Source: Saitoella complicata NRRL Y-17804 (Eukaryota; Ascomycota; Saitoellomycetes; Saitoellales; Saitoellaceae). From it: a DNA stretch of 64,000 bases. Location of the stretch: the NCBI RefSeq assembly GCF_001661265.1, contig NW_017567016.1, positions 115,750 through 179,749 on the forward strand, written 5' to 3'. Both the position numbers and the translations under genes were made by a program. Below the pieces are notes generated by a model. It saw nothing but the letters and a program-made list of their open reading frames with translations, was not told the origin of the DNA and searched no databases. Within the stretch, counting starts at the first letter, position 1; every line of letters begins with the position of its first letter. This document shows, piece by piece, positions 7,846 to 61,383 of this stretch.

Positions 7846-8366
7846 AGAAGGTGAGTGTTCCGGGCGCATTCAAAACTGATTCACACTAAGAAAAAAGCTT
7901 CCTAAAATCATCGGGAAGTGAATTGTGCTGCCCACGCCTAGCAACGTTTGGTTTCATGTCGGGCTTGGGAAACTCGAGTGTGGTTTCTCGGTATTGGCGA
8001 CTTCCTTGCACGCGCGTTTGTCACTTTTACACCACCAGAACGGGCACCGCGACGGGAATGATGAACGTGGACGACGTCTTTCAGGTCAGTATTGCTGCCG
8101 TATAATAACTACATAACTGCGGACGTGCTTCAAATGAAGAACATTCAGAGTTTGAATCAACTTGCCTTATGCGGCTTTTTGTTCCCGCGCCTGGGATGAG
8201 CCTGCGTTCCGATAACAGAAGCGTGAGATTGCGTGAGATATCCGTCAAATGATCGATAATAATATGAAGATGGTGTGCACGGGTGAATGAAGTGGAGAAG
8301 CATGATTGAAGTATGTGCACGCCGCATTACAGTGGGGTTCAAGAATGAAAAACGTAAAAAAAGCAA
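7846..8366. other. Intergenic stretch between two tRNA genes
   Basis: No protein gene recognised. Short overlapping frames on both strands have no family resemblance. The stretch carries the upstream region of tRNA-Gly(7774) and the 3' flank of tRNA-Pro. Confidence 0.4.
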
Positions 8367-8438
8367 GGCGACGAGCCAGGATTGAACTGACGACCACCTG
8401 CACCCAAAGCAGGTATGATACCACTACACCATCGTCGC
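8367..8438 (-). tRNA. tRNA-Pro, anticodon TGG
   Basis: A 72-nt cloverleaf on the minus strand. Acceptor GCGACGA pairs with TCGTCGC, and the discriminator is C. The anticodon stem CCTGC/GCAGG encloses a seven-base loop TTTGGGT with anticodon TGG. The T-stem GTCAG/CTGGC holds the loop TTCAATC. No intron. The sequence around the anticodon (GCTTTGGGTGC) is the usual eukaryotic tRNA-Pro pattern. A run of A on the plus strand just past the 3' end (8350-8361) reads as T-rich in the tRNA sense and would serve as a Pol III terminator. Confidence 0.93.
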
Positions 8439-9086
8439 CGGTGCTGAAAGGGGTATGGCACAATTGTAATATGTACCCGTTTTCCTGAACAATGTCAACG
8501 ATATCTTCTGTCACACGGTAAAGAAGCTCAATGCTTCACTAAGCAACCACAAGTATACTGTCGTCCAATATTTTGCCCAAACTGACACCGGCACTGACCG
8601 GCCAAGGTACTGAACGTCTCTTGTTTACAATTCGACAAACTGGGTCCGTCATGAATCTCAAGCTCGAGCTCATATGATCATGATGAGCGTCCATTGCTGT
8701 GACATTGTGCAGCGGAACTTCAAATGGCCTTCAATACCGCCCCGGCCAAATTTCACAGGCTATTCGTGTTGTAGAGGTGTATGGTACAGTTTTGTTTTTC
8801 ACCTTAAACAGTTCAGAAGGACATCGGCCGACATCGGTGCCGCAGCGACGACACACACCAGCTGCTTGTAGGGGTGAAACCTTCGAAGTTCATGGCGAAA
8901 ACTGCTTGATTTGGAGTTATAGCTCTGTAAATTCGTAATATGAAACGATGAACACAGCCCATCCATCACAGCAAATGCTTTTATCCGTTTGCCCTTAATA
9001 TCGCTGCAAGCCTATCACTCCATGGCCACCGCACTCAACCTCCGCGGATACGCGCATACATCCCGTACACCACCAATACAATATCG
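8439..9086. other. Intergenic stretch before the otubain gene
   Basis: Nothing recognisable in about 650 bp. It should contain the otubain promoter and 5' leader. An upstream ATG at 9021 opens a short frame that overlaps the otubain start in another frame and could act as a uORF. Confidence 0.35.
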
Positions 9087-16561: not shown

Positions 16562-16920
16562 TCCATGCGTGTCGCAGTTGCAGACGGGCCTATACTCGCA
16601 TTCCCCGATCGATCGTACAGGTCTCGCGGCTATGAATTATCGTCCAGCAACGAGTTCGATGCCGTAGATTGTGTAAAGAGTGCGAAAATGCCGATGCACC
16701 GAGATGTATTGCTCAGTTCAGCAGCGGAAAAGAGGCCCGGAGGTGGCGAGGATGGCCGGGGAATGTCGTCTACTTAACCGCTTCAACGACGATACCCGGG
16801 ACTTTTCGAAGTCGACCCTCGGCGCAGCGTGCAGGCGGAGGCAGGGGTGATCCCTAGCCACTCGAAATTACTGTATGGGAAGACAAAGTCAAAAATATCG
16901 AAACTTATAAGACGTTCGCA
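16562..16920. other. Divergent promoter region, PAN5 / LRP1
   Basis: 359 bp between two divergent starts. No gene seen. It includes a purine-rich stretch near 16730-16770 and the LRP1 leader. Confidence 0.4.
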
Positions 16921-17639
16921 ATGGCCGATACAGATGTCACTCCCCTCTTGAACAATCTTGTTGCCCAGATCGCCAACCTCGAAGCAACTCTGGCACCTCT
17001 GACAGGACATGCTGCCTCTTCCCCGGCCACTGCGTTACTCGAGACAACATCCAAGCTTCCCTTGTTAGACCGAGGGAAGTTATATGTGACTTTGACCTAT
17101 GCAATTGATTCAATCATATTCTGTCAGTTGAACCCTAGTGTATCGCACGAAGCCTCCTGCTAACCGTGTAAACAGCATATCTCAAGACAAGAGGGACCGC
17201 AACGAAAGGTCACCCTATCGTGACTGAGCTCCAGCGCGCAAAACTATACATTCAAAAGCTCAAGGACGCAGAAAACCCGCCAGCACAGCGAAGTAACCCA
17301 TTAGATAAGGATGCAGCGAACCGGTTCATCGCACATGGTCTCGCGGGGAATAACAGATACGATGCTCAGCGTGCCGAGTTGAGGGATAAGGAGCGCGCAA
17401 GTGCGAAACAACGTCTGCAAGCCCTTAATGAGAAGGGCAAGAGTTCGGATGCGAGTGGCACACATACGAAGTTCGAGGAGAGAGGAGTGGTGAAGCCGAA
17501 GGAGGACGAGGAGATGAAGGATGCATCAACGCCAACGTCGGATGATGGTGCTGCCAAGAAGACGAAGAAGCGGAAGAAGACGGCCGAGTCGGCGAACGGA
17601 GATAAGAAGAAGAGAGGCAAAGGTGCGAAGAAGGCATAA
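16921..17639 (+). CDS. LRP1: Exosome cofactor Lrp1/Rrp47 (C1D family)
   Basis: Nuclear partner of the Rrp6 exonuclease, needed for 3' processing of rRNA, snRNA and snoRNA. Exons 16921-17122 and 17176-17639 give 221 residues. The Sas10/C1D domain spans residues 1-110 with KLYVTLTYAIDSIIFSYLKT and HPIVTELQRAKLYIQKLKD, the classic core. The tail from residue 145 is Lys-rich with KKTKKRKK and KKKRGKGAKK, serving as nuclear/nucleolar signal and RNA contact. The intron is 53 nt and restores S-Y-L-K across the junction. Confidence 0.9.
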
Positions 17640-18751: not shown

Positions 18752-20072
18752 TTACTCCTCCAGACTAAAGTCGACAGACCCGGTCTGCACTCTGACCACA
18801 ACATCCCCCCTCCCTTGCCTCTGTCTCCTACCACCCCATATCTTCCTCCCAACCCATCCCATACTGTCATCCCCATCGATTTCGACACCCCGTGCGATTG
18901 CGTTCCCAACCCTTGAGCTCACATCAAAGGATCCCTGCCAGTCACGAGGATAGCTCAAAGCATAAGATCCAGCGCTCGCACCATGGAAAGCATGGACGTC
19001 GCGTGCAGAACCGCGGACGCGGATATCACCTGAACCAGCGGAGGTGAAGGTCTTGAGATCCGCCGAGTAATTGTAGTGAGATGAGGGTGGGAGGACGGTG
19101 ATGTCCACGTCGATACTGCCTGCGTCGGACCTCAGATCTAGTGCAGAGCCCAATGCGAAATGTCCCGAGATTGATCCAGCATTTGCTCGAATTGATCCAG
19201 TAGTCATGAGGACTTTGGGAGGGACTCCGGCTCGTGAGCCATGTACTGAGCCTGCGGAGTTGTGCACCTCGACTTCGGCGATACTGATTTCTGCCGCTGA
19301 ATCGAGATAGATGGACTGCACTGGGAAATCCAGCATCACATAAGGAAGGATGACCGACGGGGGAAGAGCAACCGTCGCCGAGATCTTCAAACGGTTACGG
19401 GAGTAACTTTCGCCCCAGCAACGGTTATCTTGCGGATGAGATGTCTTCAACACGACCTCCTCGGTGTTCGCTTCAATCCAGATCCTATCGACAAGGTCCG
19501 CTTCGGACATCTTCACCTCCCAATCGACGAGCATGGGATCGCCCTCGGCACCAGCAACGATCTCTACTTTGCCAAAGATGTGGCCGCAGAAGTTTCCGTA
19601 GTTCACGTTCCGGACCGTGAGACGAGATGAGGGTGAGAATGTTGTTTGAACGTGCTTTCCAGTCCATTCAAACGGAAGTTCATTGTTGTCTGAGCGATCA
19701 GGATTGGGACGATATGCGGATTCAGTATCCTGTGGACGCTCACTTGAGCTTGGCCGATCGGGGGAATGGTGAATGCCCTGTAACGCACCTGTGTTAGCAT
19801 CCGACCGTCGAACACGACCAATACAGACGCGTTACCTGAGACCATTTAGGAATATAAGAAGCCATGTGAAAGAATAGCAACAGTCCGAAGACGACAGCAA
19901 CGAGATAGAAGCGCACCGCACGGCGTGAGCTGGATGGATCGGAGCGGAAAGGATGATGAGCCCTGGGAAGAATGCGTTCTTCCGAAGCAGCTGTGTCTTT
20001 GTTCATCATCAAGTGATCTTGGGAGAGCAATGGTGAGTTGCCAAGACGAGTGCTCTTATAAGTCAGCGGCAT
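18752..20072 (-). CDS. Single-pass membrane protein with beta-solenoid-like (DUF4097-like) domain
   Basis: Exons 20072-19836 and 19777-18752 join in phase 0 to 420 residues. A basic N-terminal tail of about 55 residues leads to one membrane helix (VRFYLVAVVFGLLLFFHM), so a type II topology with the C-terminal domain outside or in the lumen is likely. The C-terminal 250 residues alternate short strands around recurring Asp/Ser-Ala-Gly-Ser phrases (NSAGSVHG, RANAGSISG, RSDAGSIDVD, TSAGSGDIRV, QTGSVDF). This is the pattern of right-handed parallel beta folds such as the bacterial DUF4097 adhesin-like domain. Function is unknown. GTG codons sit where a naive caller would start; the first ATG of the spliced frame is used. 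Confidence 0.65.
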
Positions 20073-34893: not shown

Positions 34894-36660
34894 TCAATGG
34901 CCGTACCAATCGGGATGTGAAGAGTAACCATGATACATCCCAGGTAGTGTGCTGGGCACAGTAGGTGGAGGTCCACCTGCTGGAGCGTAAGGCCCAGGGT
35001 ATTGTGCCGGCCCACTGATATATCCAGTCGGTGGACCAAAGCCAAGTGGTTAAGAAAATGGGTGTGGCAAGACCATCAGGGGAGCGACGGGGATAGTCCT
35101 TGGCGCAATGGAGTATGGTGCAAAGCGGTTTGTCGGGTGGAGAGCTTGACCTTGGGCTGGTTGCAATGGACGATGGATAGCCTGACTTTGCGAAGTTGTT
35201 TGTGGGACAGGTATCTGCGATTGAGATGACGTGATGAGCAGGGGGCATGTCGTTCGACTGTGACCCTCCTTACGACATACACCGCTTCTCCTTTCACTGG
35301 CCTATACCCTGAACTGAACACGTTCGTGAGCACCCGGTATCCTCTGAGATCAGCTTTGCGACGCCGATCCCCTCAAACTTGCTCTCGTAGGGGGTTCTCA
35401 TATGAGCTCCCCAGCAACAGCCTCAGGTACAGGTACAGCTTCAGACGCCCCGGGAATAGTAATGCCCAAGTCGAGCCACCAGGGCCGGTGTACATCTTCC
35501 ATAGTGAGTACTCCTCCTTCATCCAGAATGCGTGAGATGGTATGAGCACAAAGCAAGCCAAAGACCACCTTTGTGAATGATCGACAAGGTGGCAGTGAAA
35601 CCCCGGTGTTAAGGGCTTGTGTCGCATAGGTGTATTGCTTTTTAATCTTGAGTAGCGCAAAAGCAGTCACTTTGTGATTGATAGCTGCAAAGAACACGTT
35701 GCATGACAGTGATGTAAGAACACTTCGTTTCTCTTGGGCAATTTGTGTGAGAATTGCATGATGTTGATTCCCCAAATATGTGCAGATGCGATCCCACAAC
35801 ATTACCAATGTATCCCTTCAGAGTGCTGTGACCACCTTCAAGCCCGAGAAGTCACTGCTGTTCCAAAATGAGTTACAACATCAACCCAGGGCGCGGCGAA
35901 GTACTCTTTGTAAGGGAGGAGGGTTCGTATGTAAGAGGCCATTCCCCGAGTCTCTTGTATTTACGATTCAGGTCTGCCAAGTTGTTGTCAAACTCTTCCT
36001 CGGTTGGAGAGTACATCAGTTGCCGGAATGCCGCATTGAAGGTGACCCAATCCTCAGTTGCGGGGAGAATAGGCCTGCGATTGGTGAGAACATTTTTCTC
36101 AATGTGCCAACGGCAAAGTAATTTCTTTGCAGCAGGGAATACTCGCTCAGTTGCTTTCATGAGACCAAGATCACAATCTGTAACCACCACATCTGGGGTG
36201 TAACTATTGACCATCTCGGAGTATATCTGAAGTGCCCACGGGTAGTCTGCTGCAGTCTCATGAGAGAGAAAACACAAGGCGGATGTGAACGTAGTGTTGC
36301 AACATGTCATCCCAACAATATAGAAGAGTGGCATCTGAAATCTGTTGGTCTTATACGTGCTATCCATGACAGAAACATTCCGAAAGTGCTGTGTGAAGGT
36401 GATGAACTGAGGGTGTGCAAAGATAAGCCCAGTAACATGATTGTCGTTGTCCAACTTCATTCTGAAGGGTAATCCTCGCTTCAGAAGCTCCTCCAGCAGA
36501 ACTGCAATAGGGGTACGACCTGCCCTGAAGTCCTCTCCAATTTTGCGATTCGCATTGTAGACGTTGCGGAGGGTAAGTCTTTGTTTCCCCCTCCTTGTTG
36601 TTTGATCGTGGTCGCAACAGCTACAGCTGCAATTTGCTCGGGCGCGGTGGAAAGAACGGA
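34894..36660 (-). pseudogene. MULE (Mutator-like) transposase, frameshifted
   Basis: DDE-type transposase relic. The best block, 36460-35873 plus about 110 nt upstream in the same frame, contains GRTPIAVLLEELL, a first catalytic Asp in VMDSTYKTNRFQMP, the second in VVVTDCDLGLMKA, and the CRWHIEKN motif. The frame then shifts near 35950 (LLPYKEYF, VDVVTHFGTAVTSRA), again near 35850 (LEGGHSTLKGYI), and again at 35808. The last frame holds the CAHTISRIL and MEDVHRPWWLDL end of the domain. A zinc-knuckle-like GVCRKEGHSRTTCP, with one expected Cys read as Ser, and a Pro-rich tail with an in-frame TAA end at 34894. At least three frameshifts and one stop mean it is inactive. Confidence 0.85.
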
Positions 36661-36674
36661 ATTCGCGGCGGCAA

Positions 36675-37146
36675 TTTCAATCGGGGTCCTGATCATTCCA
36701 CACCCCTAAATCTTCATTTCACACCCCCGCGCACTCACAATTTCAAAGATATCTCAACAGCCGTTGAACTTGGGAATACGGTAAGAGCGTAGAGAGATAG
36801 AGAGTAACTTTGTGAATATCCTGATACCTTTAACTCGCAGATTTCACTCCACCAGCTGCTGTACTCTGCCAAATACTGCTGAGATGTGATGTGCAGATTT
36901 AGGCATATATGCGCTGTGCCACACCAGCCGCGCTGAGAGGTGAGAAACAGTTGGTATCTTCTCCCAGGAACCTTCAAATCCGAATTTGAAGGTGGGAACG
37001 GATTCAGAGGACTTTTATCAATCTATATACTCTCTACCCTCCGAGATCCGATTTGTGGTTGGCGAGATATCCTGATTTTTTTTTGTTGGCGCGGGGGTGT
37101 GTTACGAAGAAAATGGGGTGTGCCAGGATCAGGACCCTTTCAATCG
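36675..37146. mobile_element. MITE of MULE type with 9-bp target-site duplication
   Basis: A 454-bp element (36684-37137) bounded by imperfect terminal inverted repeats of about 75 bp: left arm 36684-36758, right arm 37063-37137. The outer 11 bases (GGGTCCTGATC) are identical and the ACACCCCCGCGC core matches. Identity is about 70% overall with one 2-nt gap. The element is flanked by a perfect 9-bp direct repeat, TTTCAATCG, at 36675-36683 and 37138-37146. Nine-base duplications are the MULE hallmark. It carries no coding capacity. An inner 9-bp-arm palindrome (CCTTCAAAT/ATTTGAAGG) lies at 36971-36992. It sits just upstream of the MULE transposase relic. Confidence 0.85.
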
Positions 37147-44118: not shown

Positions 44119-45263
44119 ATGCCAGATCCCAACATAGAAGACATCCCATACAGCGAGCTTTCGCATGAAGAGAGAACATATCATCGTGCTCAGATTGTGG
44201 CGCTCACAAAAGCCGAAATCCCAAAGGAGAAGATCGAGGAGCAGTATCTTGTCAAGAGAAGGACACTGGACGATATCACTAACCGTTGGTGGAAGACAGC
44301 CTCCTACCGCGACAGCCCTCGTTCTGGACGCCCTCAGATCCTTTCCAATCGCGATAAGGACGAGCTCACCCGCAGTGTTCGCACTGGGAAGTACAACAAC
44401 AACGCTGTGGAAGCTGCTGCTGCCTTCAATTATGGTCACCAAAGGGATGTTTCAACAGAGACGGTACACTTGTTACTGCTCAAAAGCGGAGCGAAGTGTG
44501 TTACATAGAAGAGGAAACCGTTTCTGTCGGTTGCGGCTCGGGAAAGGCGTTACCAATGGGCAAAGGAGCACTTGCACTGGAGGACGGAGGACTGGATGCG
44601 GATCATCTACACCGACGAATCGAAATACCGGCGTTCTGGGCCAGGACATGTTGCAAAATAGGGAGAATGAATTCATTCCTCGGATGCATTCTGGTGGTGG
44701 GAGTATCTTCGTGTTTGGTGGAATGTGCTGGTGGGGGGCCATAAAACTCGTTCGTTCGCAGGTCCCAACGGTCGGCAAGTTCGTGATGCGTGACTTCGTT
44801 GAAGAATTTCTACTTCTCAAGCTTCAGGAGTTCAGAGAATCCCACATCAAGCTCACAATCCAACATGACAACAATGCCAAGTTTCACGTGCCCAACTGCA
44901 AAGAATCCTACGAAAGGGAGGGATACAGAGTCCTACCCTGGCCGGCATACTCACCTGATATGAACCTCATTGAGGACTTTTGAGGACTTGTGGTGCCTGA
45001 TCTCCAGACGCCTGGAAAAGCGAGCTGCGGTTGCAAATGACCTCGATGAACTATGGGAGTGGACATTGGAGGAATGGGAAAAGATTCCACTTGAATACCT
45101 CCGGAAGCTCATTGAATCGATGCCCCCAGAGGGTGAAGGACCTGTACGATGTAAAGGGGGGTCATACAAGAGGCATTCAGGTTTACTTGTGAGACTGGGG
45201 AGGGAGGTGTTGGATGGAGCCGGTGGGGCACTCAGGAATGACCCCCGCGAATACTATAGTTAG
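44119..45263 (+). pseudogene. Tc1/mariner-like transposase, broken
   Basis: Starts at ATG 44119 with a helix-turn-helix region (VKRRTLDDITNRWW; DSPRSGRPQILSNRDKDEL) and reaches a TAG at 44506. Past the stop the same frame continues with the first catalytic Asp region IIYTDESKYR. The frame then changes near 44650, giving GGGSIFVFGGMCWWGAIK, the second Asp in IQHDNNAKFH and VLPWPAYSPDMNLIED. A 10-bp tandem duplication at 44971-44990 shifts the frame again before DLWCLISRRLEKR and the C-terminus, which stops at 45263. The DDE order and the WPAYSPDMN.IE motif are those of Tc1-type elements. No clear terminal inverted repeats were found. Confidence 0.85.
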
Positions 45264-48065: not shown

Positions 48066-50003
48066 ATGAACGATCCAAACCAACCAGATGGCTTCATTCC
48101 ACCTGGCAAACCGGTGGATGAGGCACCATCTTTGAGCGCCAGCGCTGATGACGGGTGGGGTAACATTCTTCTGTCCGATGTTCGTTTCAGTTATAGATGC
48201 CAAGTGTGTGCCAGGAGCTCACACAGTATGATTAGGCCGGTCTCGATATCCTGCTACAGCGAGCGAAGCAGAGTGTAGCTTCAGGCAAGGAACTCGCGAG
48301 TTTCCTTAGGAAGCGAGCACAACTTGAGGAAGAGCATGCCCGAGGTATTTATCGTACCCCTACTCGCAGATCGCATGTCTAATAATGTACAGGCCTGCAA
48401 CGGCTATACCGGCAAACCCAGGAGAACCTTCGGAAACCTGAAGTCAAGCAGCAATCATTCTCAAGACAGATCATTTCCGCATTACAGGTTCATGACAAGC
48501 TCGTCGAGAATAGTTTGTCTTTCGTTAACCAGCTGCATGAAATGGTAGACGAGATCGATAAGATGGCCAAAACGACACATGCAACTCGCAAGCAGTTGAA
48601 GGAGACGGGTTTGAGGAGTGAGCGCAATGTGGTGGATGCGGACAAAGAAGCGGAAAAATCTAAAGCAAAGTATGAGTCTATCTGCGAGGAATACGACCGT
48701 ACACTGGCCCTTAAAGCCAACGACGTAGCTGCAAAGAAGTCCAACAAGACATTTGGCTTCAAGTCATCTAAATCTGGATCTCAGCTAGTGAAGCACGAAG
48801 AAGAAACTCGTTCGCGAGCAGAGAGCGCAGATCGCGAGTACAAGGAAAAAGTCAGAATCGCTCACGATATGCGCGAGGAGCTCTTACATCAACTTCGACC
48901 ACGCCTTGCCCGGCAATTTCAGGACCTTATTTCCGAAAGCGACTCAACAATGTCCTTCCAATTACAGAAATATGGATTTTTGCAAGAAGCGCTCCTACTT
49001 AACCATGGTGTCTCAATTTCCCCAGCCGAGCCGCGTCAGAATGGCGAAGGACTCCGGAACATACTCGCAGACATTCAGGACGAAGAAGATTTTGGTATTG
49101 TATGCTATTAAAGAGTGCTGTTCACCTTCGCTGACCTCTTTCAGTTGAATACGTCACCGGATTCTCCTCCAAAGCCAGTGTACCACAGCGATCAGAGGTA
49201 CATTATGAGGCACATGCTGTGAGTACAATTGCAAACTCCATGGTTGAAGCTGAACATGCTAACATTCATCGATCAAGTCATTGCACCCACCAGCTACCCC
49301 TGAGAATCCAACATTTGGAGTTCACCTGCGCCAGCTCACACAATCTGAAGGAACGGCTGTTCCGCATGTTGTCATTCAGTGCTGTACGGCTGTGGATAAG
49401 TTTGGTTTGGATGTTCAGGGAATCTATCGTCTAAGCGGTACGGCGTCACAAATACAGAAGATCAAAAACATGTTCGACGAAGGTTTGTCGATACTCTTAG
49501 CGTATTACTCACTCTGTTGCTAACTGGCTTAGCAGATGCCGAGAACGTCGTGTTGAACTCGCCAGATGATTTCTTTGGCGACATCAATGGCGTGACAGGC
49601 GCCTTGAAGTCGTTCTTCCGTGAACTGCCCGACCCACTTTCCACAAACACGCTTTACCCCGAATTCATCCAGGCCGCGAAGATCGACGATGACGTTCAGA
49701 GGAGGGATGCTTTGCATGCCGTAGTGGTGAGTGCTACACGAGCCTGCGGTAGGAACACGCCAGTTAACCACGACGTAGAACAAACTCCCAGATCCGAACT
49801 ACGGTATCTTGAGATATCTATGTTTCCACCTGCATCGCGTCCAGCAAAACGAAGCCGCCAACAAGATGCCAATTACCAATCTTGCCATTGTCTTCGGACC
49901 TACGTTGATGGGCAGTGGTGGAGCAGTTGCAGATATGGGATGGCAATGCAGAGTTGTGGAGACGATCTTGTCCTATTGTTACGACATATTCGAAAGCGAG
50001 TAA
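48066..50003 (+). CDS. RGD1: F-BAR / RhoGAP protein (Rgd1-like)
   Basis: Membrane-curving GTPase-activating protein for Rho GTPases in polarity and wall integrity. Seven exons: 48066-48179, 48236-48344, 48393-49094, 49145-49218, 49278-49482, 49536-49726 and 49779-50003; 539 residues. The F-BAR domain starts at GLDILLQRAKQSVASGKEL and is helical to about residue 270. The RhoGAP domain begins at FGVHLRQLTQ and carries the arginine finger in GIYRLSG, with LLKSFFRELP-like ALKSFFRELPDPL, and ANKMPITNLAIVFGPTL near the end. Intron 1 has a GTTCGT donor. Exon joins all restore F-BAR/RhoGAP motifs. A Rac GTPase gene lies 10 kb away in this window. Confidence 0.9.
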
Positions 50004-50063: not shown

Positions 50064-51126
50064 CTAGGTGGAACGATATGCGGCAAAGACCGCCATAGTC
50101 GTTAGGCTGGTCAGAACACTTGACGCCAGATTCACCTAAGGCACGTTAGTGGATGACAATGTCAAAACCGCTGGGACATACCTGGTTGTTGTCTAGATAG
50201 TTACCCCAGGCCGCGCCGATGGTGGTGGCAGTCTTGCCATCCACCTTCGCATGCTTGCCTCCATGAGCTTCGATGACTTTCTTACTTTCCTTATCCAAAG
50301 CCGTTGCCTGTAGAGTAGCTCCCAGCAATGAGTCAAGAAGACTTCCTCCAAGTCCCGAGAAAACACCGACGATGACCAATTCCGCTCTGTTAGTAGAGGC
50401 GCAGACAGGGAACGTCAACATAGCCAGTACGCCCATGATAAGGCCACCCATTAATGCGCCAAACAGACCTAACGCCGACACACCGCCGTTGAAGCCCCGG
50501 GGCACGGGCTGCAAGTTGAGGATCGACACTGGAGGCGTAGTTGACAAAATCCCCAACTCGGAAGAATATGTATCAGCCGTTGCGCAGGCATAATGACTGA
50601 TTGAGGTTGTGAGCATACGCTTCTTTCCAGCATACATCTCTTTCAACTTACGCCAAAACACCCACAAGCAACACATCGTTCCACAAACTAAGCGTGCTAG
50701 CTCCGAAGCAGAGGGAAGGATCATACACATAAATCTGATGGATCAATCCCAGAGTCACGGCAGTCATCGAGTTTGCGAGGACCTGTACCCAGGTACGAGC
50801 CGGGCCCTTCTTTCCCTTCTCAGACAATGACGTGTGAGAAACATCCGCGAGAACCGTGGTTTCCTTAACGGATTGCTTGTATCGGGTCAAGGCAGTACCC
50901 TAAAACCCCAAATATGATGAGCTCGAGTAGAAGAATTAACAGCCGGCTCAATGCATACCGTCAAGTAGAATATCGTGAGGAGCCAAGCATTCGCCGAGTA
51001 CGGATGAGAAACGGTAACCAAGCCAACGATTGCTGCAGCTATTGATCCCGAGACAGAGAGTGAGCCCTTGGCATATGCTCTACCAGCCAATGTCAAAACA
51101 ATGGCCGGGCCGACGACTGAACCCAT
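50064..51126 (-). CDS. TMEM19/DUF92 integral membrane protein
   Basis: Four exons: 51126-50959, 50899-50652, 50596-50182 and 50135-50064; 300 residues. About six hydrophobic helices are visible, starting with VVGPAIVLTLAG and SIAAAIVGLVTVSHPY. The family motif is ATADTYSSELGIL, and FNGGVSALGLFGALMGG and GGSLLDSLLGATLQAT follow. The last exon (NLASSVLTSLTTMAVF) is needed to complete the final helix; reading through the intron gives a shorter, less hydrophobic end. Plant and cyanobacterial relatives (VTE6) act as phytyl-phosphate kinases; the fungal role is unknown. Confidence 0.85.
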
Positions 51127-51207
51127 GGCGAATTTGGTGGTTGTGTGTGCCGTCCACGTATCGTCCGCGTACCTGGCCCGCTGGTGCCTTGCGCTGCTTT
51201 GTCGTCA

Positions 51208-51273
51208 TCTATAAACGAGGACCAGCCAGGATACACTCATACACGGCAAACTCTCTATAAACGAGGACCAGCC
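51208..51273 (+). repeat. 20-bp direct repeat in the homeodomain gene promoter
   Basis: The sequence TCTATAAACGAGGACCAGCC occurs exactly at 51208-51227 and at 51254-51273, 46 bp apart. It lies 39-104 bp upstream of the homeodomain ATG at 51312. Each copy contains TATAAA. Confidence 0.85.
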
Positions 51274-51311
51274 TCCGTGTCTGTTACAGGCTACACTTCG
51301 CAAGATACACG

Positions 51312-51998
51312 ATGATGCTGTCGCCAGCTCCGCCAGCCCAGCCCACGCGGGCCATGCATCTGACCGCCCTTGTCGCCAATATGCTCGCCATTCGCGATAC
51401 GCTCCTGTTGCAAAACACAACATCCGGAGATATCGTGAGCTCATCGAATCAATTGATCAATACATTGCAGTCGTTCAAATCCATTATCGCGGAGCAACCG
51501 CTTGACGAATCGGAACGGACATTCGAAGATGCTTTGCACTCTCTTGCTCAACAAGTCCGCGACATATGCGTACTTAGTGCAAAGTTTGAGGATGCCATAC
51601 GCCGTGCGACGCCCGATGAGCTGGACTCATATGTCGCATCGAGTGAATGCGAATGCAACTACCCCAAGCCCTCCAAGAAGGTCATGAACGATCCGGCATA
51701 CATCCGATCGCTATCTGCTTCTCCTGAACCGGATAGCGTCGACGAATATCAGCAAGAGGACCGAACGGAGCCCTTGAAGAGCTGGTTTGTGCAGCACGTG
51801 ACGGACCCATATCCCACGAGCAAGGAGAAGGAGGAGCTTTGTCTACAAACGGGAATGAAGCGCACGCAACTCAATATGTGGTTCACGAATGCGCGCAGGA
51901 GATCAGAATGCGGAGCGAAGTTCTTGGACGATATCATCGAACCGCGCTTGAAAGAACTTGATGCGTTGGACTGGGTACCGGAGGCTGATGTGGACTAG
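51312..51998 (+). CDS. TALE homeodomain transcription factor, candidate mating-type gene (Pi/alpha2-like)
   Basis: Single exon, 228 residues. The N-terminal 120 residues are helical and may dimerise. The homeodomain is at about residues 143-200. It has the three-residue TALE insertion (DPYPTSKEKEEL), a GMKRTQLNMWFTNARRR recognition helix with W190, F191, N193 and R195-R197, and Thr where most TALE proteins have Ile at homeodomain position 50. The length, isolated homeodomain and lack of other domains fit mating-type proteins such as S. pombe Pi and yeast alpha2. The next gene downstream encodes an HMG/alpha-box protein, which supports a MAT locus. A general TALE regulator remains possible. 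Confidence 0.82.
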   Translation: MMLSPAPPAQPTRAMHLTALVANMLAIRDTLLLQNTTSGDIVSSSNQLINTLQSFKSIIAEQPLDESERTFEDALHSLAQQVRDICVLSAKFEDAIRRATPDELDSYVASSECECNYPKPSKKVMNDPAYIRSLSASPEPDSVDEYQQEDRTEPLKSWFVQHVTDPYPTSKEKEELCLQTGMKRTQLNMWFTNARRRSECGAKFLDDIIEPRLKELDALDWVPEADVD

Positions 51999-52465
51999 GG
52001 GCATTTGTCTTGATGTTGGAAGGCAACATGAGTACACCAACACAAGAAAGACAATATCTTATTCATAGCTATCGATAAGGTGATTTTTATGCTTTTGATC
52101 TAACACACGTAGCAATATATTTAGGTAACAATGTCATTACGGCGCAGCTGGACTGGACGCTTAACTTCGAATGGTTCAAAGTATAGCTACCTCACCTACA
52201 TACAGGTACGATGTGTGTGTAGGTATAACCGATTGAGCAGTAGCTGCTACTGCTACTAGGACATGTATCGCAGCCGCCCCTAGCTGCGCTACTTACACGT
52301 GCACACACCCGCCATTGCCTTTAGCACGGTGTTTAAATCAGGCGTACCTGCACAGCACAACTCTTTGTGCTTCCTTTGTCCACTGACGTTTAGCAAGCTG
52401 GATAGACGTACCATTCGGACGAAGATGTAGGCTGTATACGAACACTGTTACTCGCCGAAGTACCT
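51999..52465. other. Spacer between the homeodomain and HMG/alpha-box genes
   Basis: 467 bp without a gene. It includes a region rich in TAC/TAG trinucleotides (52235-52265) and probably the promoter of the downstream gene. Confidence 0.4.
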
Positions 52466-53434
52466 ATGGCGGCTGCACGATCACGAAAAAACAAGCAACG
52501 TCGGTATACCGCTGGCTGCTCCAAGTGGTCTATTAAGGACACGCCGATTGCACGTTCAGCGACGCCGCCATCAGACGTTCCGGGAGTCGTGCAGAACGGG
52601 CAGCATCCTAATATACATTTCATTCAATGTGTTGATGGAAATGCTAGGCATGAAGTCCTCCTTGTTGAAGGTGACGCTTCTTCTTCAGTGCCACGCGCTT
52701 CTAGCTTGGAGAAACCGGCACAGAGTCGATATGCGACGTCGAACTCATTCTTTCTCTTCAGACAAGCCATGGCGCCGCTTAACTCACATCTCGGCCATCA
52801 GACTGCTATCTCGAAAGCTCTGAGTCGAGATTGGGACAAACTGAGCAAGAAGGAGAAAGACATCTGGCATCAGCTCTACGTGAAGCTGCACGATGATAAC
52901 AAGATTGAAAAGCTGCTGCAAGATAGGCGACGTTTTGCTCCGCCAAGTCCTCACCCGGCCGGCAGGAGCACACATACAAGAACTGAAGATCCGGCGACGG
53001 AGGAAGATGGAGATGGCATCAGTATGTGTCAGCCCAACTCCATGCCGGTGAACAGTATTTACGGTGATGCGCACGGTGATCTGTGCCATGTTTGGGATCA
53101 TTCTGCGCAGTTTCGTCAACCGATTCCATCTATATATACAGCAACATACCTGCTTGTCGACGGTGATGTTGCATCGACGGAAGTCGCAAGCCCATACCTG
53201 AGCTATGATGAATATAACGTCTCAGCCCAGAGCTTCGACATGCCAATAAGCGGCTTTATCGATTATCAGCCTTGCCAGTCGGCATTCCTAAAGCCCTACG
53301 TGATGCCGCTTTCCGGCAGTGGGACAGAGGAGCTCGTCCCTCATATCATGCCGGTTTACGCCACGTCTTCCGCACAGGGTGGGGCAGGTTTTGATTATTC
53401 TCTCTATACATCATCACCGGATCTAATCTGGTAA
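52466..53434 (+). CDS. HMG-superfamily protein, candidate mating-type gene (alpha-box or MATA-HMG type)
   Basis: Single exon, 322 residues. A basic N-terminus (ARSRKNKQRR) is followed by the DNA-binding box at about residues 88-150: SNSFFLFRQAMAPLNSHLG, then ISKALSRDWDKLSKKEKDIW. The N-S-F-x-x-F-R start and the second Trp at the place where MATA-HMG proteins have Tyr favour the alpha-box (MATalpha_HMG) version. ISKALS..W..LSKKEK looks like ordinary HMG. No RPPNAF motif is present. The rest is low complexity and aromatic/Pro-rich, as in activation regions. The neighbour is a TALE homeodomain gene and the locus adjoins SNX3 and APC5. Subtype is unsure; a role in mating is inferred from content and neighbours. 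Confidence 0.75.
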   Translation: MAAARSRKNKQRRYTAGCSKWSIKDTPIARSATPPSDVPGVVQNGQHPNIHFIQCVDGNARHEVLLVEGDASSSVPRASSLEKPAQSRYATSNSFFLFRQAMAPLNSHLGHQTAISKALSRDWDKLSKKEKDIWHQLYVKLHDDNKIEKLLQDRRRFAPPSPHPAGRSTHTRTEDPATEEDGDGISMCQPNSMPVNSIYGDAHGDLCHVWDHSAQFRQPIPSIYTATYLLVDGDVASTEVASPYLSYDEYNVSAQSFDMPISGFIDYQPCQSAFLKPYVMPLSGSGTEELVPHIMPVYATSSAQGGAGFDYSLYTSSPDLIW

Positions 53435-53541
53435 TATGCATACGTCTGGTCAGGGTATAGTCAAATCAGTAAGGGTATACCAAAGAACATTCAATTCATA
53501 AACATGACTCCGATCGCTAAAATTCACTGCAATGAGCCCAA

Positions 53542-54266
53542 TCAATTCCATTGGTTCTGCACACTCGTTAGGAAGTCGAAACGGAATCAGTGGAATCACT
53601 TACATGATCCCAGTGTGGGTCCTGAATAAAAGCACACAACACCTTAGAACCTGTCTGCAACAACGGATGACCTGCGACACTTCAGACGTTGTTAGCGATT
53701 ATGAAAATACAAGATTTTGATTTCATACATTTGAAGAAACCTCTCTAGTCCATCTCGTCGGTGCTCAATCACTTCATCGGAAAACCTGTTCGTGAACACT
53801 TTCCCGGGCAAAGAAGGAACGGAAACCCTTGACGATTCCCGCTCTAGAATCTCGCGGAAATGCTCGAAATCGCTGTATCTGCGACGGACGTTTGACTGCC
53901 TGAGTTTGAATGCGGGTATGTTCGTCTAAGGGGGTTTCGTTATCATCCGATCCACGCCCGTCGAGGAGTGCTTCATGACTTACCTTGCAAATGATCTCAT
54001 AGTCCGTGTACATCTTTCTGCCAATACCATGAGTTTGGGGATTCCGAACCTTTCATGCGCATTTAGCCCCTTCCATCCCATTTCCGAGTTCTGCAAGCAC
54101 CAAACATACCTCTATCTCCAGGAAGTTCTCTGGGACCCCATATCTGATGAACTGATCAGCTAGAAGAACATAAACCCGGAATAAATGCGCCACACAGTTC
54201 GTCCATTGGCATCTGACGCATTTGCGGACGGGAGTTCTCGTCGAATCCACGCGGAAGAGGCTGCAT
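53542..54266 (-). CDS. SNX3: Sorting nexin 3 (PX domain, retromer partner)
   Basis: PI3P-binding protein that helps retromer return cargo from endosomes to the Golgi (yeast Snx3/Grd19). Six exons: 54266-54196, 54143-54110, 54049-53984, 53925-53729, 53679-53604 and 53556-53542; 152 residues, human 162. The PX domain covers nearly all of it: [27 protein letters not shown], the PI3P site Arg-Tyr in [11 protein letters not shown], the [20 protein letters not shown] phrase and [14 protein letters not shown]. The last exon is only 15 nt and encodes NQWN-stop, matching the family's NQW end. None of these exons is long enough to stand out alone. Confidence 0.93.
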
Positions 54267-54510
54267 GATGGGCGAGGGTGTATCGTGAGAGGGATGCTAT
54301 TGCAGAGAGACTGGAGGCAGTAGTTCAATCTGATGTCTGATGGGTCGTTTGCGAGCGTTACCGATGGTTTGGATGACGTTTCCCATTGTATGCGGCCCTT
54401 GCGCAACCGTGCGTGTACTGTAGGTATCGATAAGCGACACCTGCCCCGTCGCTGGCACTGGAACATTCGAACGGCCTTGCGCGACCATCCAGCCTGAAGC
54501 CACGACTGAC

Positions 54511-56527
54511 ATGATACGGAAGAGCTTTGATGATCACCATTACCCGGTCCTCACTCCCCATGCTATCGCAAGTGCGGCCATCGTCGACATATACTGCTCC
54601 ATGCTGCTCCCTTCGTCTTGCACAATCGGCGTGCTGGCAGTAGTCATGGAGTCCGTGAAGCCGAATCACCATGATAGCGGAGACCTTTCTGCTCTACTAT
54701 CTAGGCTTACGCGTTACCAGAGTACGCTTCCTAGTAAGAATGTTGCTGATCTCCTCCTTGAAAGAGTTGGTCAACCTATCGACAATTACCACTTCCTAGC
54801 ACGGCTGACATCGGCATAGTTACGCGATCTTTCTACATTCGACTCGTTCAACGATTATGTTAGTAATCTCGGTACGCTTGTGGTTCGGCGTGAGCCAGAA
54901 GCGATTCCAGAGGCTCGAATGCTGCGTCTGAGTAGAACCTCTGTTCTCGGTCTTTTCATTCGACAATGCGCTCTCGCATACAACCGGATGTCTTTCGCAT
55001 CGGTTACACGTCTGTGGACTTCCTTCCTGGCCTTTAGTCACAATGCAATGACGAGAAGTATGAATGCATTTGAAGCGCCGGATCATCCTGCTTCGAAGCA
55101 TGATCAGACGGATGGTGCCAGCTCCTCCATGGATATCGACAGCCTGATACTTTTTCAGACGTCCTACATGCAGAGTACGTTTCTCTACTCTCAGGTGGTA
55201 TCATACTTGACTTACCTTCCGCAGCATACATCTCTGAGCTGCCCGTATCCATGCGTACCGCAATCCGAAGAATCTTCTCGGCGGACTCTGTGACGGCTCC
55301 GTCCAACGCGTACCTGAGGTATGAATACTTTCTGTCTCATAAATACTCACCTCTCATCTGTCTGGAGCAGGTTTCTGGATGCCTGGAGGAAAGGCGATGG
55401 CCATGCCTCGCTGGAGAACCTGAGACGCTATTTTGACTATTCAAACGGAGTTCAGGACGTGTACGTCTATGCGTACATGCGCCTATTTGCCCTTGCTGAC
55501 AAGATCTTAGGAGGCTTCATCGATATGCGCTACTCACCTTAGCGATACTATCGGCTGAGCTTCAATGCCCGCGCGAAGCCTCATCGGTGAGGAGCATCAG
55601 ATGATTGCGGAGGTACGATCAACTAACACCATTCCCATCTTAGGCAATATCAGAGGCTATCAATACGGCACGGGGAAGCAGAGACCATGCATTTCTGGCC
55701 TTTGCACTCGCTCTTCAGAACAGATTCCGTCTGAGTTGGCCAGGTGAAGATTCAGGAAATATGGCTCAGGTGAGTCTTTGACCGTATGTGTTGGAGGATG
55801 CTCACAATGTATTGCATCTCGCAGGTATCACACCCAGCAACAGCTCTGGAAGATTTCTACACCGCTAGTTATGTAAAAGCACGCCCTGAGAATTATAAGG
55901 TGGCACTGGAGGAAGGGTCATTGAGCGCCGAGATCTGGAACAATTTGGGTATGTCAGGGTTTCCGAACATTGAAAACTCTGCTCAAGTCACGGTTTTGAT
56001 AGGAGAGAGTTATCTATCAAGACTTTATAGGGATGTTTCCCTCTTAGTGCCAGTTGATGCGCCAATACAGGTATCTACGGGTTGTCAGGTCTTGCCGTTT
56101 TCAGTTGCGTTGCTAATCCATATCCCTTGAAGGATTATGAACCTCGCATGTCAGTTTCAATACCTCCACCGCCAAGCGTCTTGGTGTCGCATCTGTCGTC
56201 TATCTGGCATGACAGGAAAAGGAGTTCTCCAAGTGCCATCAATAAGCACAGGTCTTTACTGCGTGAAGGCCGCCTGTCAAAGGTGGGTGAAATGAACGCT
56301 CCTCTTCTTAGGTTACACTGACAATTTAGGCTTACGATGTGTTATCCCACGTTGCGAGAATAAGCGATTCCCAAGATCCGGCCCTACGTCGAGAGCTGCA
56401 GAATCCAATATCTCATCTTCAAAAGGCAGGTAGTGTATCGATGGATGCCCTCATCGGCTAACAGCAATTTTTAGAACAACGCGTCAGCCGAAGGCTTTGG
56501 AGACATGATGCTGCTCAACAGCATTGA
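54511..56527 (+). CDS. APC5: Anaphase-promoting complex subunit 5
   Basis: TPR scaffold subunit of the APC/C ubiquitin ligase. Ten exons by frame: 54511-54765, 54820-55174, 55225-55318, 55371-55460, 55511-55586, 55644-55769, 55825-55948, 56071-56282, 56330-56429 and 56475-56527; 494 residues, shorter than the usual 700. Family features: the N-terminal LTPHAIASAAIVDIYC, DLLLER then LRDLSTFDSFN, RFLDAWRKGDGHASLENL, RRYFDY, and the TPR blocks YALLTLAILSAELQCPREAS and AISEAINTARGSRDHAF. Intron 1 uses GTTGGT. Exon 8 was chosen over an alternative ending at 56070 because it continues the frame into the last two exons. The N-terminus may miss an exon. Confidence 0.82.
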
Positions 56528-56676
56528 TCGTTAGGTACAGCAACACTGAGATTCGCACGCTCATTGAGAGGACATCACACTTGCGGTCGAGAAAGTAAAC
56601 ATGACTTTTATAATCGAGGACGCCTGTATGCCAAACCAGAGAAGAGAAAAGTTCAAACCGCACCACATCTGAAGTC

Positions 56677-57805
56677 TCACGATACTAGACTAAGGAATAG
56701 CTCGTAGGAGCCGAACATGATTGCCGCGTTCGGCACGACTCTCATCATATGCGCCGTCAGACCACCATATAGAGCCGCCACACCCTCTTCCTTCAGTACT
56801 ATTCTAAAACACTGCACCAAACCGGTGTATTTTTGCTTTCCATTCTCCATCGGCGCTTGTCGCAGACGCGTCCGAATGACTTCATGAGGATATGCGATAC
56901 CAGCCGCAAATACCTTCGCTATACCGGCAGATCCCGATTTGCCCGCCCACTCAATGAATACGTCCATACTCGTCGGTTCAGGATCGATCAACCGCCGTCT
57001 AGCACTTCGTTCCGCTATCCTTCTCTTCAACTCCTCGTACACTACCCACTGTAGAGAACTTTCTGCGACACCAAGATAAGATGCACTCAGACCACGATAT
57101 AAACCCCGCACACCTTCGTTCCGGACGGTTTGCATGAAACAATCCAAGCTGTTCTTGTACTGGCGACTTGCAGCGCCATCTGTTGAAGCCTTTTGTTTGT
57201 CCAGTTGCAGCCTAGTTTTGATGAGCCAGATAGGGTTCGTGCATGTCGAGGTGGTTATCCCTGCTGTAATTGCTGCAGTGACATGTACCCACGCAGCTTC
57301 TTTGCCGCCATTCAGGTTATCGGCGATGATGCGCTTTCCGTTGCCGTACATGAAGAAGTTTATAGCTCTTGCGGGAATGACACCAACAAGGTTAGGACCC
57401 AGTCCCTTGAATAGCGCTTTTGGACCCTCAATTCGGTAGATGTTGGTGAGAATATGAAAGGTATCCGCAAAGTGGGCGAAGCCACTTTTCACTATTCCCA
57501 TCTTAACGGTTCCATGTGCCGCTCGTCGTTCCAGAAGCTGCTTTTTGTAGAAGTCGCTTTGCAGGCGGGTTTTGACAACGTCGAGCGGTGAGGTTGCTAA
57601 TGCTCCAGACATACCGGCAAGTCTAAAGCGGGATCAGTCTCCATGGGTCAAGCACGTAGGATGCAACGACATACCCTCCAGCTGCAAAATGCGCCCAGGC
57701 GGCGGGAGCCTGCTTCTGCACGACCTGAGCATCGTTAGCTATTGGAGGTGCGGCCGGTGAGGTTGGCCGGGCGGAAATATTGGCGAGGTCTGCCGTATTA
57801 GACAT
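56677..57805 (-). CDS. RIM2: Mitochondrial pyrimidine nucleotide carrier (Rim2/SLC25A33-36 type)
   Basis: Inner-membrane carrier for pyrimidine (deoxy)nucleotides, needed for mitochondrial DNA and RNA. Exons 57805-57675 and 57622-56677 give 358 residues (yeast 377). The three carrier motifs are TSPLDVVKTRLQ, TNPIWLIKTRLQ and AYPHEVIRTRLRQ; the Trp in the second motif is typical of this subfamily and of flavin/folate carriers. The long insert in repeat 1, AHFADTFHILTNIYR and SLQWVVYEELKRR favour Rim2. The 52-nt intron splits the GGLAGMSGALATSP glycine run. Convergent with APC5. Confidence 0.9.
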
Positions 57806-58487: not shown

Positions 58488-59046
58488 TTAGATGAAGGTC
58501 TCGTAGGGCTGGGCGTAGATAGTCTCGGGGGCGTTCTCAGCGGTCTTGACGAGGCGGGCCTCACGGGGCTGAGCAGGGAGACGCTTGAGCTGAACGAACT
58601 CGCCGTTGGCGGTCTTCTTCTTCTCAGCGTTCAACTTGACACGCTTGATGAAGTCCTCGCGGGAACGGGAGTGCTTGACGTGCTCAACGCGGATGTTGAC
58701 ACGCTTCTCCATGTAGCGGTTGCCGACAACCTTGTAGCAGATAACACCGACGGAGGACTTGGTGACGTTGTAGACGATACCAGTCTTACCGTGGTAGTAC
58801 TTGTGGGGCATACCCTTCTGGACGGCACCGTTCACGACAATGTCAACGATGTCTCCGACCTTGTAGGTCTTCATGTAGGTCGACAAGCGGATCTGTCCAT
58901 GCTGGCGGAATCCACGCTGGAAGAGGTACCTATGAGAAAGAACCGTGTGTCAGTCCCCAGAGCTCGGGAAAAAGCCGCAGAAACGCAGAGCGAGAGAACG
59001 GAGCGAAATACCTGGTGCGGGCGCGGTAACCGAAGGAGTGAGGCAT
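58488..59046 (-). CDS. RPL21: 60S ribosomal protein eL21
   Basis: Large-subunit ribosomal protein. Exons 59046-59012 and 58929-58488 give 158 residues (yeast 160). The N-terminus MPHSFGYRARTRYLFQRGF and the body KTYKVGDIVDIVVNG, GKTGIVYNVT and RVEHVKHSRSR are near-universal. Codons show the high-expression bias. A long antisense frame over exon 2 is a by-product of that bias. It is divergent from uS4 with 292 bp between the ATGs, a pairing also seen for RPS9/RPL21 genes in yeast. Confidence 0.96.
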
Positions 59047-59338
59047 ACTGTCTTTGTCGCTTGGTGTTTTCGCCGGCTCACTGGAATCGTCGTCCCTCCC
59101 TGTCCCTCGATGCACCGGGGCGAATTTCTCTGTGGCTGCTGCCTGAAGGGTTTGTGGGCGGGAACCCTACGGCACCTGCACCCCCGCGCAAAAAATAATT
59201 ACCAAGTACGAATCGCGGTCGCTGGAACGAAGCCTCGTCTCGACTCGTCCAGCACCCGTATCGACAACTGACCAGGTAAGTTCACGCGATTGCCCTGTTG
59301 TCGCGTCGTTTTCGATCTCTAATTCCCGTTCTACAGCC

Positions 59339-60041
59339 ATGCCCCGTGCTCCCAGGAACTGCTCCAAGACCACTAAGGTCCCCCGTCGTCCTTTCGAGTC
59401 CGCTCGGTATGCCACTTTCCTTTCCTTGCGTGAGGATACGCTGCCTTGAGCTTTTTTGCTAACCACTCTATGTGGATAGTCTCGACGCCGAGCTTAAGCT
59501 CGCCGGTGAATACGGTCTCCGCAACAAGCGTGAAATCTGGCGTGTCATGCTCACCCTCTCCAAGATCCGTCGTGCTGCTCGTGAGCTCTTGACCTTGGAT
59601 GCCAAGGACCCCAAGCGTCTCTTCGAGGGTAACGCCTTGATTCGCCGTTTGGTCCGCATCGGTGTCTTGGACGAGTCTCGCATGAAGCTCGATTACGTCC
59701 TTGCCTTGAAGGTTGAGGACTTCATGGAGCGTCGTCTCCAGACCCAGGTCTTCAAGCTCGGTTTGGCCAAGTCCATCCACCACGCTCGTGTCCTCATCCG
59801 TCAGCGCCACATCCGCGTCGGCAAGCAGATTGTCAACGTTCCTTCCTTCGTTGTCCGTCTCGACTCCCAGAAGCACATCGACTTCGCCTTGACCTCCCCC
59901 TACGGTGGTGGTCGCCCTGGCCGTGTCAGGCGCAAGCGGTAAGACTACCTGTGTTTATTGTTTTTGATCATATGCTTACAACTGTTTAGTGCTGCCGCTG
60001 CCGCTGGCGGTGACGCCGAGGAGGCCGAGGACGAGGAGTAA
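59339..60041 (+). CDS. RPS9: 40S ribosomal protein uS4
   Basis: Small-subunit decoding-site protein. Exons 59339-59406, 59480-59938 and 59990-60041 give 192 residues (yeast 195-197). It starts [20 protein letters not shown], includes the S4 RNA-binding motif ([20 protein letters not shown]) and ends [15 protein letters not shown] plus an Ala/Gly and acidic tail (AEEAEDEE) encoded by exon 3. If the last intron is kept, the frame reads CGG then TAA at the splice donor itself, ending the protein right after the RRKR. Confidence 0.96.

Positions 60042-60532: not shown

Positions 60533-61383
<851 letters not shown>

What the first reader, a model, noticed from the sequence alone, without database searches (positions are those of the whole stretch)
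51208..56527. Candidate mating-type (MAT) locus: TALE homeodomain gene beside an HMG/alpha-box gene, next to SNX3 and APC5
Seen: two adjacent same-strand single-exon genes, one a short TALE homeodomain protein and one with a diverged HMG-superfamily box of mating-type style, followed by SNX3 and APC5, with an F-BAR-RhoGAP gene 1.3 kb upstream. Known: S. pombe mat1-P encodes a homeodomain protein (Pi) plus an alpha-box protein (Pc), and yeast MATalpha pairs alpha2 (TALE) with alpha1 (alpha-box). From memory, APC5 lies near MAT in several filamentous ascomycetes and a GTPase-activating protein gene (GAP1) flanks MAT in Cochliobolus. Inference: this is the P/alpha-type idiomorph. If the box is instead a true MATA-HMG (Mc-like), one locus would hold genes of both types, implying primary homothallism.
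Basis: partly seen in the sequence, partly recalled or inferred. Interest (0 to 1): 0.88.

Follow-up and report, generated by a model that had tools for sequence, protein, structure and literature searches.

The report
Fungal mating-type locus candidate, homeodomain plus HMG
Two small neighbouring regulator genes in an unidentified fungus, one with a homeodomain and one with an HMG box, look like part of the region that decides which cells can mate, but the mating role is inferred from gene order and family and has not been shown.

Summary
An intronless TALE homeodomain gene (51312-51998, +) is followed 467 bp later by an intronless HMG-box gene (52466-53434, +), then SNX3 (-) and APC5 (+). 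The box is a diverged HMG box (Pfam 22 bits, E 2e-4, just under the curated cut-off). No alpha-box family was matched, so the 'P/alpha idiomorph' reading is not supported. The RPL21-RPS9 pair downstream marks a fungus; its phylum could not be settled. Closest described arrangement: the Wallemia MAT locus (one HD1-type gene, an HMG gene and STE3, no HD2). Pneumocystis (matPi plus matMc, intronless) is the other precedent. APC5 is a proposed ancestral MAT neighbour in ascomycetes. My motif and membrane-segment scans found no HD2, STE3 or pheromone gene in the window, which ends 12 kb downstream. Two ACAAAG cores sit 11 bp apart in the HMG promoter, one more upstream of the homeodomain gene. Best reading: the transcription-factor part of one MAT haplotype, probably bipolar and Wallemia-like, probability about 0.5. 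Chance neighbours and a primary-homothallic locus remain possible. No strain comparison was possible.

The parts
48236..50003 (+). F-BAR RhoGAP gene (left flank)
   Evidence: FCH E 5.4e-10; RhoGAP E 7.9e-12; the scripted model starts only at 48336, so the start is approximate
50146..51126 (-).
   Evidence: PF01940 E 5.5e-41; spliced model
51197..51202 (-). single ACAAAG core upstream of the homeodomain gene
51208..51227 (+). 20-nt direct repeat, copy 1, homeodomain gene promoter
51254..51273 (+). 20-nt direct repeat, copy 2 (100% identical)
51312..51998 (+). TALE homeodomain gene, intronless, 228 aa; helical N-terminal part, homeodomain, short tail
51783..51902 (+). homeodomain segment matched by Pfam Homeobox_KN (residues 158-197)
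52236..52254 (.). 19-nt palindrome between the two genes, significance unknown
52363..52379 (-). two ACAAAG cores 11 bp apart in the HMG gene promoter; one extends to ACAAAGGAA, 8 of 9 to the recalled pheromone response element
52466..53434 (+). HMG-box gene, intronless, 322 aa
52742..52888 (+). HMG box segment matched by Pfam (residues 93-141)
53583..54135 (-). SNX3-like (PX domain) gene, several introns, approximate limits read by eye
   Evidence: PX E 3.3e-18; three-frame reading
54511..56535 (+). APC5 gene, several introns, approximate limits read by eye
   Evidence: Apc5_N E 2.4e-6 on 54820-55290; three-frame reading
56677..57805 (-). mitochondrial carrier gene
   Evidence: Mito_carr E 4.3e-67; model
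58488..58949 (-). RPL21 (eL21) gene, main exon
59547..60038 (+). RPS9 (uS4) gene, main exon (to 59942) and a last exon read by eye; upstream exon(s) not modelled

Best explanation
This is the transcription-factor part of one mating-type (MAT) haplotype of a fungus. The 228-aa TALE protein is an HD1-class mating homeodomain protein (SXI1 / alpha2 / Pi type). The 322-aa protein is a sequence-specific HMG-box regulator. Proposed working (inferred): the HMG protein switches on pheromone-response and mating genes through ACAAAG sites, including sites in its own promoter. The HD1 protein, through its helical N-terminal part, pairs with a non-TALE homeodomain partner supplied by the other mating type, or with itself, and so controls what happens after cell fusion. 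As in Wallemia, the HD2 gene is missing from this haplotype, and STE3 with a pheromone gene is predicted to lie beyond the right end of the window. Shown: both genes, the homeodomain, a probable HMG box, their order, the promoter sites, and no HD2 or STE3 detected in the window by the scans made. Inferred: mating function, dimerisation, bipolar system and position of STE3.
For: The TALE homeodomain aligns without gaps through the PYP loop to PKNOX1 and MEIS in the five alignments shown (E 1.8e-10 for PKNOX1), and yeast MATalpha2 is in the list at 1.1e-5. The model puts the homeodomain helices on PKNOX1 and MATalpha2 at 0.7 A over 47-50 residues, with helices before it. HMG box. One HD gene and one HMG gene side by side is unlikely by chance: with the W. 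ichthyophaga counts (4884 genes, five HD genes, three putative mating-related HMG genes) the chance rate is about 0.1-0.6% (hand calculation). Wallemia MAT loci hold SXI1, an HMG gene and STE3 with only one HD gene, SXI1 and STE3 being about 20 kb apart in W. sebi. APC5 was proposed as an ancestral MAT partner in ascomycetes and is reported as a MAT flank in Eurotiomycetes; here it is the second gene after the HMG gene. ACAAAG cores: 31 in 64 kb, 3 of them in the 652 bp upstream of the two genes, 0.32 expected.
Against: No mating function, expression or strain polymorphism was tested. The HMG match is under Pfam's cut-off, the box model was poor (pLDDT 59) and its fold search gave nothing below E 2.2. 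PDB sequence search with the box ranked clathrin light chains and a Cux-2 chain above UBF and LEF1, none significant. No mating-specific profile matched the HD protein. No STE3, HD2 or pheromone gene was found in the window, though a STE3 profile was not run. BAP31 and CAF1, the Wallemia flank genes named in the passages I read, were not noticed, though not every ORF was scanned. Phylum unsettled. The promoter-motif test was made after seeing the sites.
Confidence: 0.5

Rival explanations
1. Primary homothallism: the locus joins a P/alpha-type gene (Pi-like TALE homeodomain) and an M/a-type gene (Mc-like HMG) in one haplotype, as in Pneumocystis, so that a single strain is self-fertile. This needs the organism to be an early ascomycete (Taphrinomycotina or similar).
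For: Pneumocystis matPi and matMc are in one locus, intronless, and of similar size (660 and 753 bp in P. jirovecii by their coordinates). APC5 next door is an ascomycete MAT feature. HMG rather than alpha box.
Against: In Pneumocystis end4 (the SLA2 gene, recalled) lies between the MAT genes and matMi is present; here the two genes are adjacent and no SLA2 was noticed. Remembered sequence features point more to Basidiomycota. A Rac-type gene, present here, is recalled to be absent from fission yeast.
Confidence: 0.2
2. Chance neighbours: an ordinary TALE regulator and an ordinary diverged HMG factor happen to be adjacent, and the MAT loci lie elsewhere.
For: No P/R gene or second homeodomain found in 64 kb. 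The HMG box is weak. W. ichthyophaga has five HD genes of which only one resembles mating HD genes.
Against: Adjacency of the two families plus APC5 is improbable by chance (0.1-0.6% for the pair alone, hand calculation). ACAAAG sites are concentrated in the two promoters.
Confidence: 0.2
3. P/alpha-type ascomycete idiomorph: alpha2/Pi-like homeodomain plus an alpha-box (Pc/alpha1-like) protein.
For: Homeodomain protein of alpha2-like length and layout (alpha2 length recalled); APC5 flank.
Against: The box matches HMG_box, and weakly HMG_box_2, with no alpha-box family listed up to E 10 (that Pfam holds PF04769 is recalled). The two conserved aromatic residues are 11 apart, as in the recalled HMG consensus, against 9-10 in recalled alpha boxes; this is weak.
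Confidence: 0.05
4. Decaying MAT remnant in an asexual or recently homothallic lineage: the genes persist but mating is no longer controlled here.
For: Short HD protein, no partner gene found, diverged HMG box, weak codon bias in the first 90 codons of the HMG gene.
Against: Both frames are intact and each ORF as a whole keeps coding bias; the homeodomain keeps its recognition-helix residues WFTNARRR.
Confidence: 0.05

Closest known systems
Wallemia MAT locus (W. mellicola/sebi, W. ichthyophaga)
   Same: One HD1-type homeodomain gene and an HMG-box gene in one haplotype, only one HD gene (passages read)
   Different: STE3 and a pheromone gene lie in the Wallemia locus but were not found in this window; the flank genes named there (BAP31, CAF1) were not noticed here; window G+C 50.6% against 40-45% in Wallemia
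Pneumocystis MAT locus (matPi, matMc, matMi)
   Same: Intronless homeodomain and HMG genes at one locus (passages read)
   Different: end4 between the MAT genes and a matMi gene; here adjacent genes with SNX3 and APC5 beside them
Pezizomycotina MAT1 locus
   Same: APC5 as neighbour
   Different: Pezizomycotina MAT1 has no TALE homeodomain gene (recalled); APN2, SLA2 and COX13 were not noticed here, by eye only
Saccharomyces MATalpha (alpha1 plus alpha2)
   Same: TALE homeodomain of the alpha2 kind (28 bits), protein of similar length (recalled)
   Different: Second gene is an HMG box, not an alpha box; several neighbouring genes here carry introns

Membership tests
TALE (Homeobox_KN) homeodomain proteins | Three-residue loop extension and Homeobox_KN profile match above cut-off | tested here: met
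   63 bits against cut-off 24; ungapped alignment with PKNOX1 and MEIS through PYP
Fungal HD1 mating proteins (SXI1 / bE / alpha2 / Pi) | Helical N-terminal dimerisation part before the homeodomain | tested here: inconclusive
   Predicted helices 13-32, 38-59, 66-98, 101-109 at block pLDDT 54-72; no mating-specific profile matched
Fungal HD1 mating proteins (SXI1 / bE / alpha2 / Pi) | Tree position with known mating HD1 proteins | not testable with these tools
   No fungal protein collection on hand beyond PDB chains
HMG-box transcription factors | HMG_box profile match | tested here: inconclusive
   22.0 bits, E 2.2e-4, under the curated cut-off 25.4; PDB sequence and fold searches not significant
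MATalpha (alpha-box) proteins | Match to the alpha-box profile | tested here: not met
   Not among matches up to E 10; presence of PF04769 in the library is recalled
Wallemia-type MAT | HD1-type gene and HMG gene together, no HD2 near | tested here: inconclusive
   HD and HMG genes adjacent; one WFxNxR motif in six unspliced frames of the window, so an HD2 whose motif is split by an intron could be missed
Wallemia-type MAT | STE3 and pheromone gene in the same locus | tested here: inconclusive
   None found in the window by motif and membrane-segment scans; only 12.0 kb to the right of the HD gene is visible, and SXI1-STE3 distance in W. sebi is about 20 kb
Ascomycete MAT locus | APN2 and SLA2 flanks | tested here: inconclusive
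   Not noticed in the ORF and coding-segment lists, read by eye; only APC5 was found
MAT locus (any fungus) | Two or more divergent alleles or idiomorphs segregating with mating type | not testable with these tools
   Single sequence; no genome held for the window

The most novel reading that the evidence does not exclude
A basidiomycete whose MAT locus still sits beside APC5 and the RPL21-RPS9 pair, the kind of neighbourhood known from ascomycete MAT. An HD-plus-HMG locus at this position would then be the ancestral arrangement of ascomycetes and basidiomycetes together, with Wallemia and Pneumocystis as surviving relatives rather than oddities.
Probability: 0.15. Interest if true: 0.8.

Novelty: new member of a known kind. 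Interest (0 to 1): 0.42.

Why it matters
If confirmed, it adds another lineage to the very short list (from the papers seen here) of fungi whose mating locus pairs one HD1-class gene with an HMG gene and has no HD2. It also puts that pair next to APC5, a gene proposed as an ancestral MAT partner in ascomycetes. That would let the origin of the dikaryan mating locus be tested by gene order.

Tried and rejected
Alpha-box reading of the second gene: not supported by Pfam. HD2, STE3 or pheromone in the window: one HD motif in six unspliced frames, and nine CAAX-type ORFs of 18-120 aa, one of which is the tail of the Rac-type gene and none pheromone-like to my eye. The first membrane-segment scan did not pick up the DUF92/TMEM19 gene, used afterwards as positive control. 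A looser scan recovered it among 21 clusters. I read four stretches, covering three of the other 20 clusters and part of a fourth, in three frames of one strand and saw nothing of the STE3 kind; the other 16 clusters were not read again. No STE3 profile was run over the window.

Relatives: scans of viral contigs with the HMG protein, the HD protein and RPS9 found none. The genome-contig scan with RPS9 gave 2 loci, one with 85% identity in an Ignavibacteria bin (taken as eukaryotic contamination) and one archaeal, neither useful. No whole genome is held.

Phylum: uS4 and eL21 against PDB were not diagnostic, nor was Rpn5 or Rsm22. In NDUFV2, of the 5 alignments shown (27 chains matched), the window has I-P and G-W at two sites where the 3 ascomycete chains have M-P and G-F/Y, an insect chain I-P and G-W, and a mammal chain L-P and G-W; yet the two best scores are ascomycete chains, 106 and 105 bits against 95 for the insect (species of the chains recalled). 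This is weak evidence against Pezizomycotina and Saccharomycotina. Remembered features of the kelch protein, the Rac-type gene, NDUFV2 and DUF7330 favour Basidiomycota but come from no call.

Inverted repeat 47955/52263: the local alignment is limited to 22 nt; its left arm lies beside or in the cupin gene, so I treated it as chance. Structure models: the HMG segment did not fold confidently. A viral structure search of the HD model gave no significant match (best E 0.33, a giant-virus homeobox protein).

Pfam was run on 39 stretches, several of them short exons; the window has 398 open stretches of 70 aa or more, most of which were not scanned. APC5 near MAT with L21e and S4-9 in Onygenales is recalled; a search for it found no paper and no paper listed held L21e.
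Full report
The window is fungal. It carries the RPL21-RPS9 neighbour pair (58488-60038; [quoted passage not shown] Several of its genes have short introns, others are long single open frames. No whole genome is held for it, so nothing outside the 64 kb could be examined.

Anatomy. From left to right: F-BAR RhoGAP (+, ending at 50003), DUF92/TMEM19 (-, 50146-51126), the homeodomain gene (+, 51312-51998), the HMG gene (+, 52466-53434), SNX3 (-), APC5 (+, to about 56535), a mitochondrial carrier (-), RPL21 (-), RPS9 (+) and a Rac-type GTPase (pieces at 60749-61299, ending in a CAAX box). Names such as SNX3 and Rac are by eye on top of the Pfam domain. The two regulators have no introns while several of their neighbours do.

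Homeodomain gene. Homeobox_KN 63 bits. PDB sequences: PKNOX1 E 1.8e-10, MEIS about 4e-10, yeast MATalpha2 1.1e-5; the five alignments shown, PKNOX1 and MEIS, run ungapped through the PYP loop that defines TALE proteins. The model, built from the single sequence, has mean pLDDT 59. It puts helices at 13-32, 38-59, 66-98 and 101-109 before the homeodomain, and its homeodomain part lies on PKNOX1 and MATalpha2 at 0.7 A over 47-50 residues, although the best Foldseek E-value is only 0.09. It is the only WFxNxR motif in six unspliced frames of the window. A helical part ahead of the homeodomain is what an HD1 mating protein needs for pairing, but no mating-specific profile matched, so HD1 membership is likely rather than shown.

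HMG gene. HMG_box 22.0 bits, E 2.2e-4, and HMG_box_2 E 0.13; no alpha-box family up to E 10. The 101-aa stretch found no significant PDB chain; UBF and LEF1 appear at E 0.5-1.1, below clathrin light chains (best 0.11) and a Cux-2 chain (0.19). The single-sequence model was poor and Foldseek gave no match below E 2.2; 9 of its 34 rows, the top row among them, were HMG boxes, but superposed badly (rmsd 7.8-17 A). I take it as a real but diverged HMG box. Both reading frames as a whole keep codon bias when the region is left out of training and the other frames are strongly negative; the first 90 codons of the HMG gene are an exception, with only +2.6 against -1.0. An APC5 piece scored just +2.2 in the same test, so a low score does not exclude coding.

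Promoters. The core ACAAAG occurs 31 times in 64 kb on both strands. Three lie in the 652 bp upstream of the two genes (51197; 52363 and 52374), where 0.32 are expected; the Poisson chance of three or more is about 0.4% (hand calculation). Only two consecutive pairs within 25 bp exist in the window, and one is this one. Four sites in the window come within one base of the recalled element ACAAAGGGA, one of them here. The motif was chosen from recalled knowledge of HMG-box targets after I had seen the sites, so this is suggestive only. The homeodomain promoter holds an exact 20-nt direct repeat 46 bp apart.

Precedents. In Wallemia the MAT locus has SXI1, an HMG gene and STE3; in W. ichthyophaga the other version lacks the homeodomain gene and has a truncated HMG gene (PMC6738226, passages). 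Two versions of the locus split 25 W. mellicola strains into 12 and 13 (PMC6628117, passages). In W. sebi, SXI1 and STE3 are about 20 kb apart with a pheromone and the HMG gene between (PMC3849046, passages). PMC6730849 and PMC12510652 (passages) treat Wallemia as a case with a single HD gene. Self-pairing of a basidiomycete HD protein has a precedent in the Hd2 of Cystofilobasidium capitatum (PMC8545103, passages). In Pneumocystis, matPi, matMc and matMi form one intronless set thought to give primary homothallism (PMC5821091, passages); another Taphrinomycotina yeast, Novakomyces, yielded no clear mat genes (PMC7912804, passages). APC5 was proposed as an ancestral partner of ascomycete MAT, with doubts raised in the same paper (PMC10745113, passages), and is given as a conserved MAT flank in Eurotiomycetes (PMC8900376, passages). 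I found no description of this particular gene order in the ten searches made, but none was aimed at the exact order, most hits were seen as listings only, and most subscription papers are not in the library.

Phylum. Not settled. At two NDUFV2 sites the window differs from the three ascomycete chains shown and agrees with an insect chain, although the ascomycete chains score best overall; this argues weakly against Pezizomycotina and Saccharomycotina. Remembered features of the kelch protein, the Rac-type gene and DUF7330 favour Basidiomycota. My rough weights, which are judgement only, are Basidiomycota 0.6, Taphrinomycotina 0.25, other 0.15.

Judgement. Using W. ichthyophaga counts of five HD and three putative mating-related HMG genes among 4884, an HD gene with an HMG gene as immediate neighbour is expected by chance at about 0.1% (one mating-type HD gene) to 0.6% (all five) per genome. 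APC5 as second neighbour adds weight if the organism is an ascomycete, and would be new if it is a basidiomycete. Against this stand the missing P/R genes, the weak HMG score and the lack of any strain or functional data. I therefore hold a MAT locus of some kind at about 0.8 in total: 0.5 for one haplotype of a Wallemia-like locus, 0.2 for primary homothallism, and 0.1 for the alpha-type and remnant readings. Chance neighbourhood has 0.2.

Noticed in passing
window 5631-7484 (-): A SerB-type phosphoserine phosphatase (TIGR00338, 272.7 bits) with a long N-terminal part that includes a weak SPX match (20.4 bits, below cut-off 27.8). A possible SPX-SerB fusion, which would link serine synthesis to phosphate sensing.
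   Followed up: partly
window 16858-17636 (+): Sas10/Utp3/C1D family gene (two sub-threshold pieces). A C1D gene is recalled to flank the b mating locus in Ustilago; here it lies 34 kb from the homeodomain gene.
   Followed up: no
window 44138-44980 (+) and 35876-36676 (-): Transposase remnants: DDE_3 superfamily (E 2.2e-4, below cut-off) and MULE (E 1.1e-22); G+C falls to 42% at 42-44 kb.
   Followed up: no
window 18755-19831 (-): Sub-threshold DUF7330 match (24 bits), a family I recall mainly from mushrooms.
   Followed up: no
window 2637-2710, 7773-7845, 8366-8439: Three tRNA genes, Gly-TCC twice and Pro-TGG.
   Followed up: no
window 52236-52254: 19-nt palindrome between the homeodomain and HMG genes.
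   Followed up: no
L001 4390-4653: RPS9 of eukaryotic type (85% identity) on a contig binned as an Ignavibacteria genome: probably contamination in the public bin.
   Followed up: no
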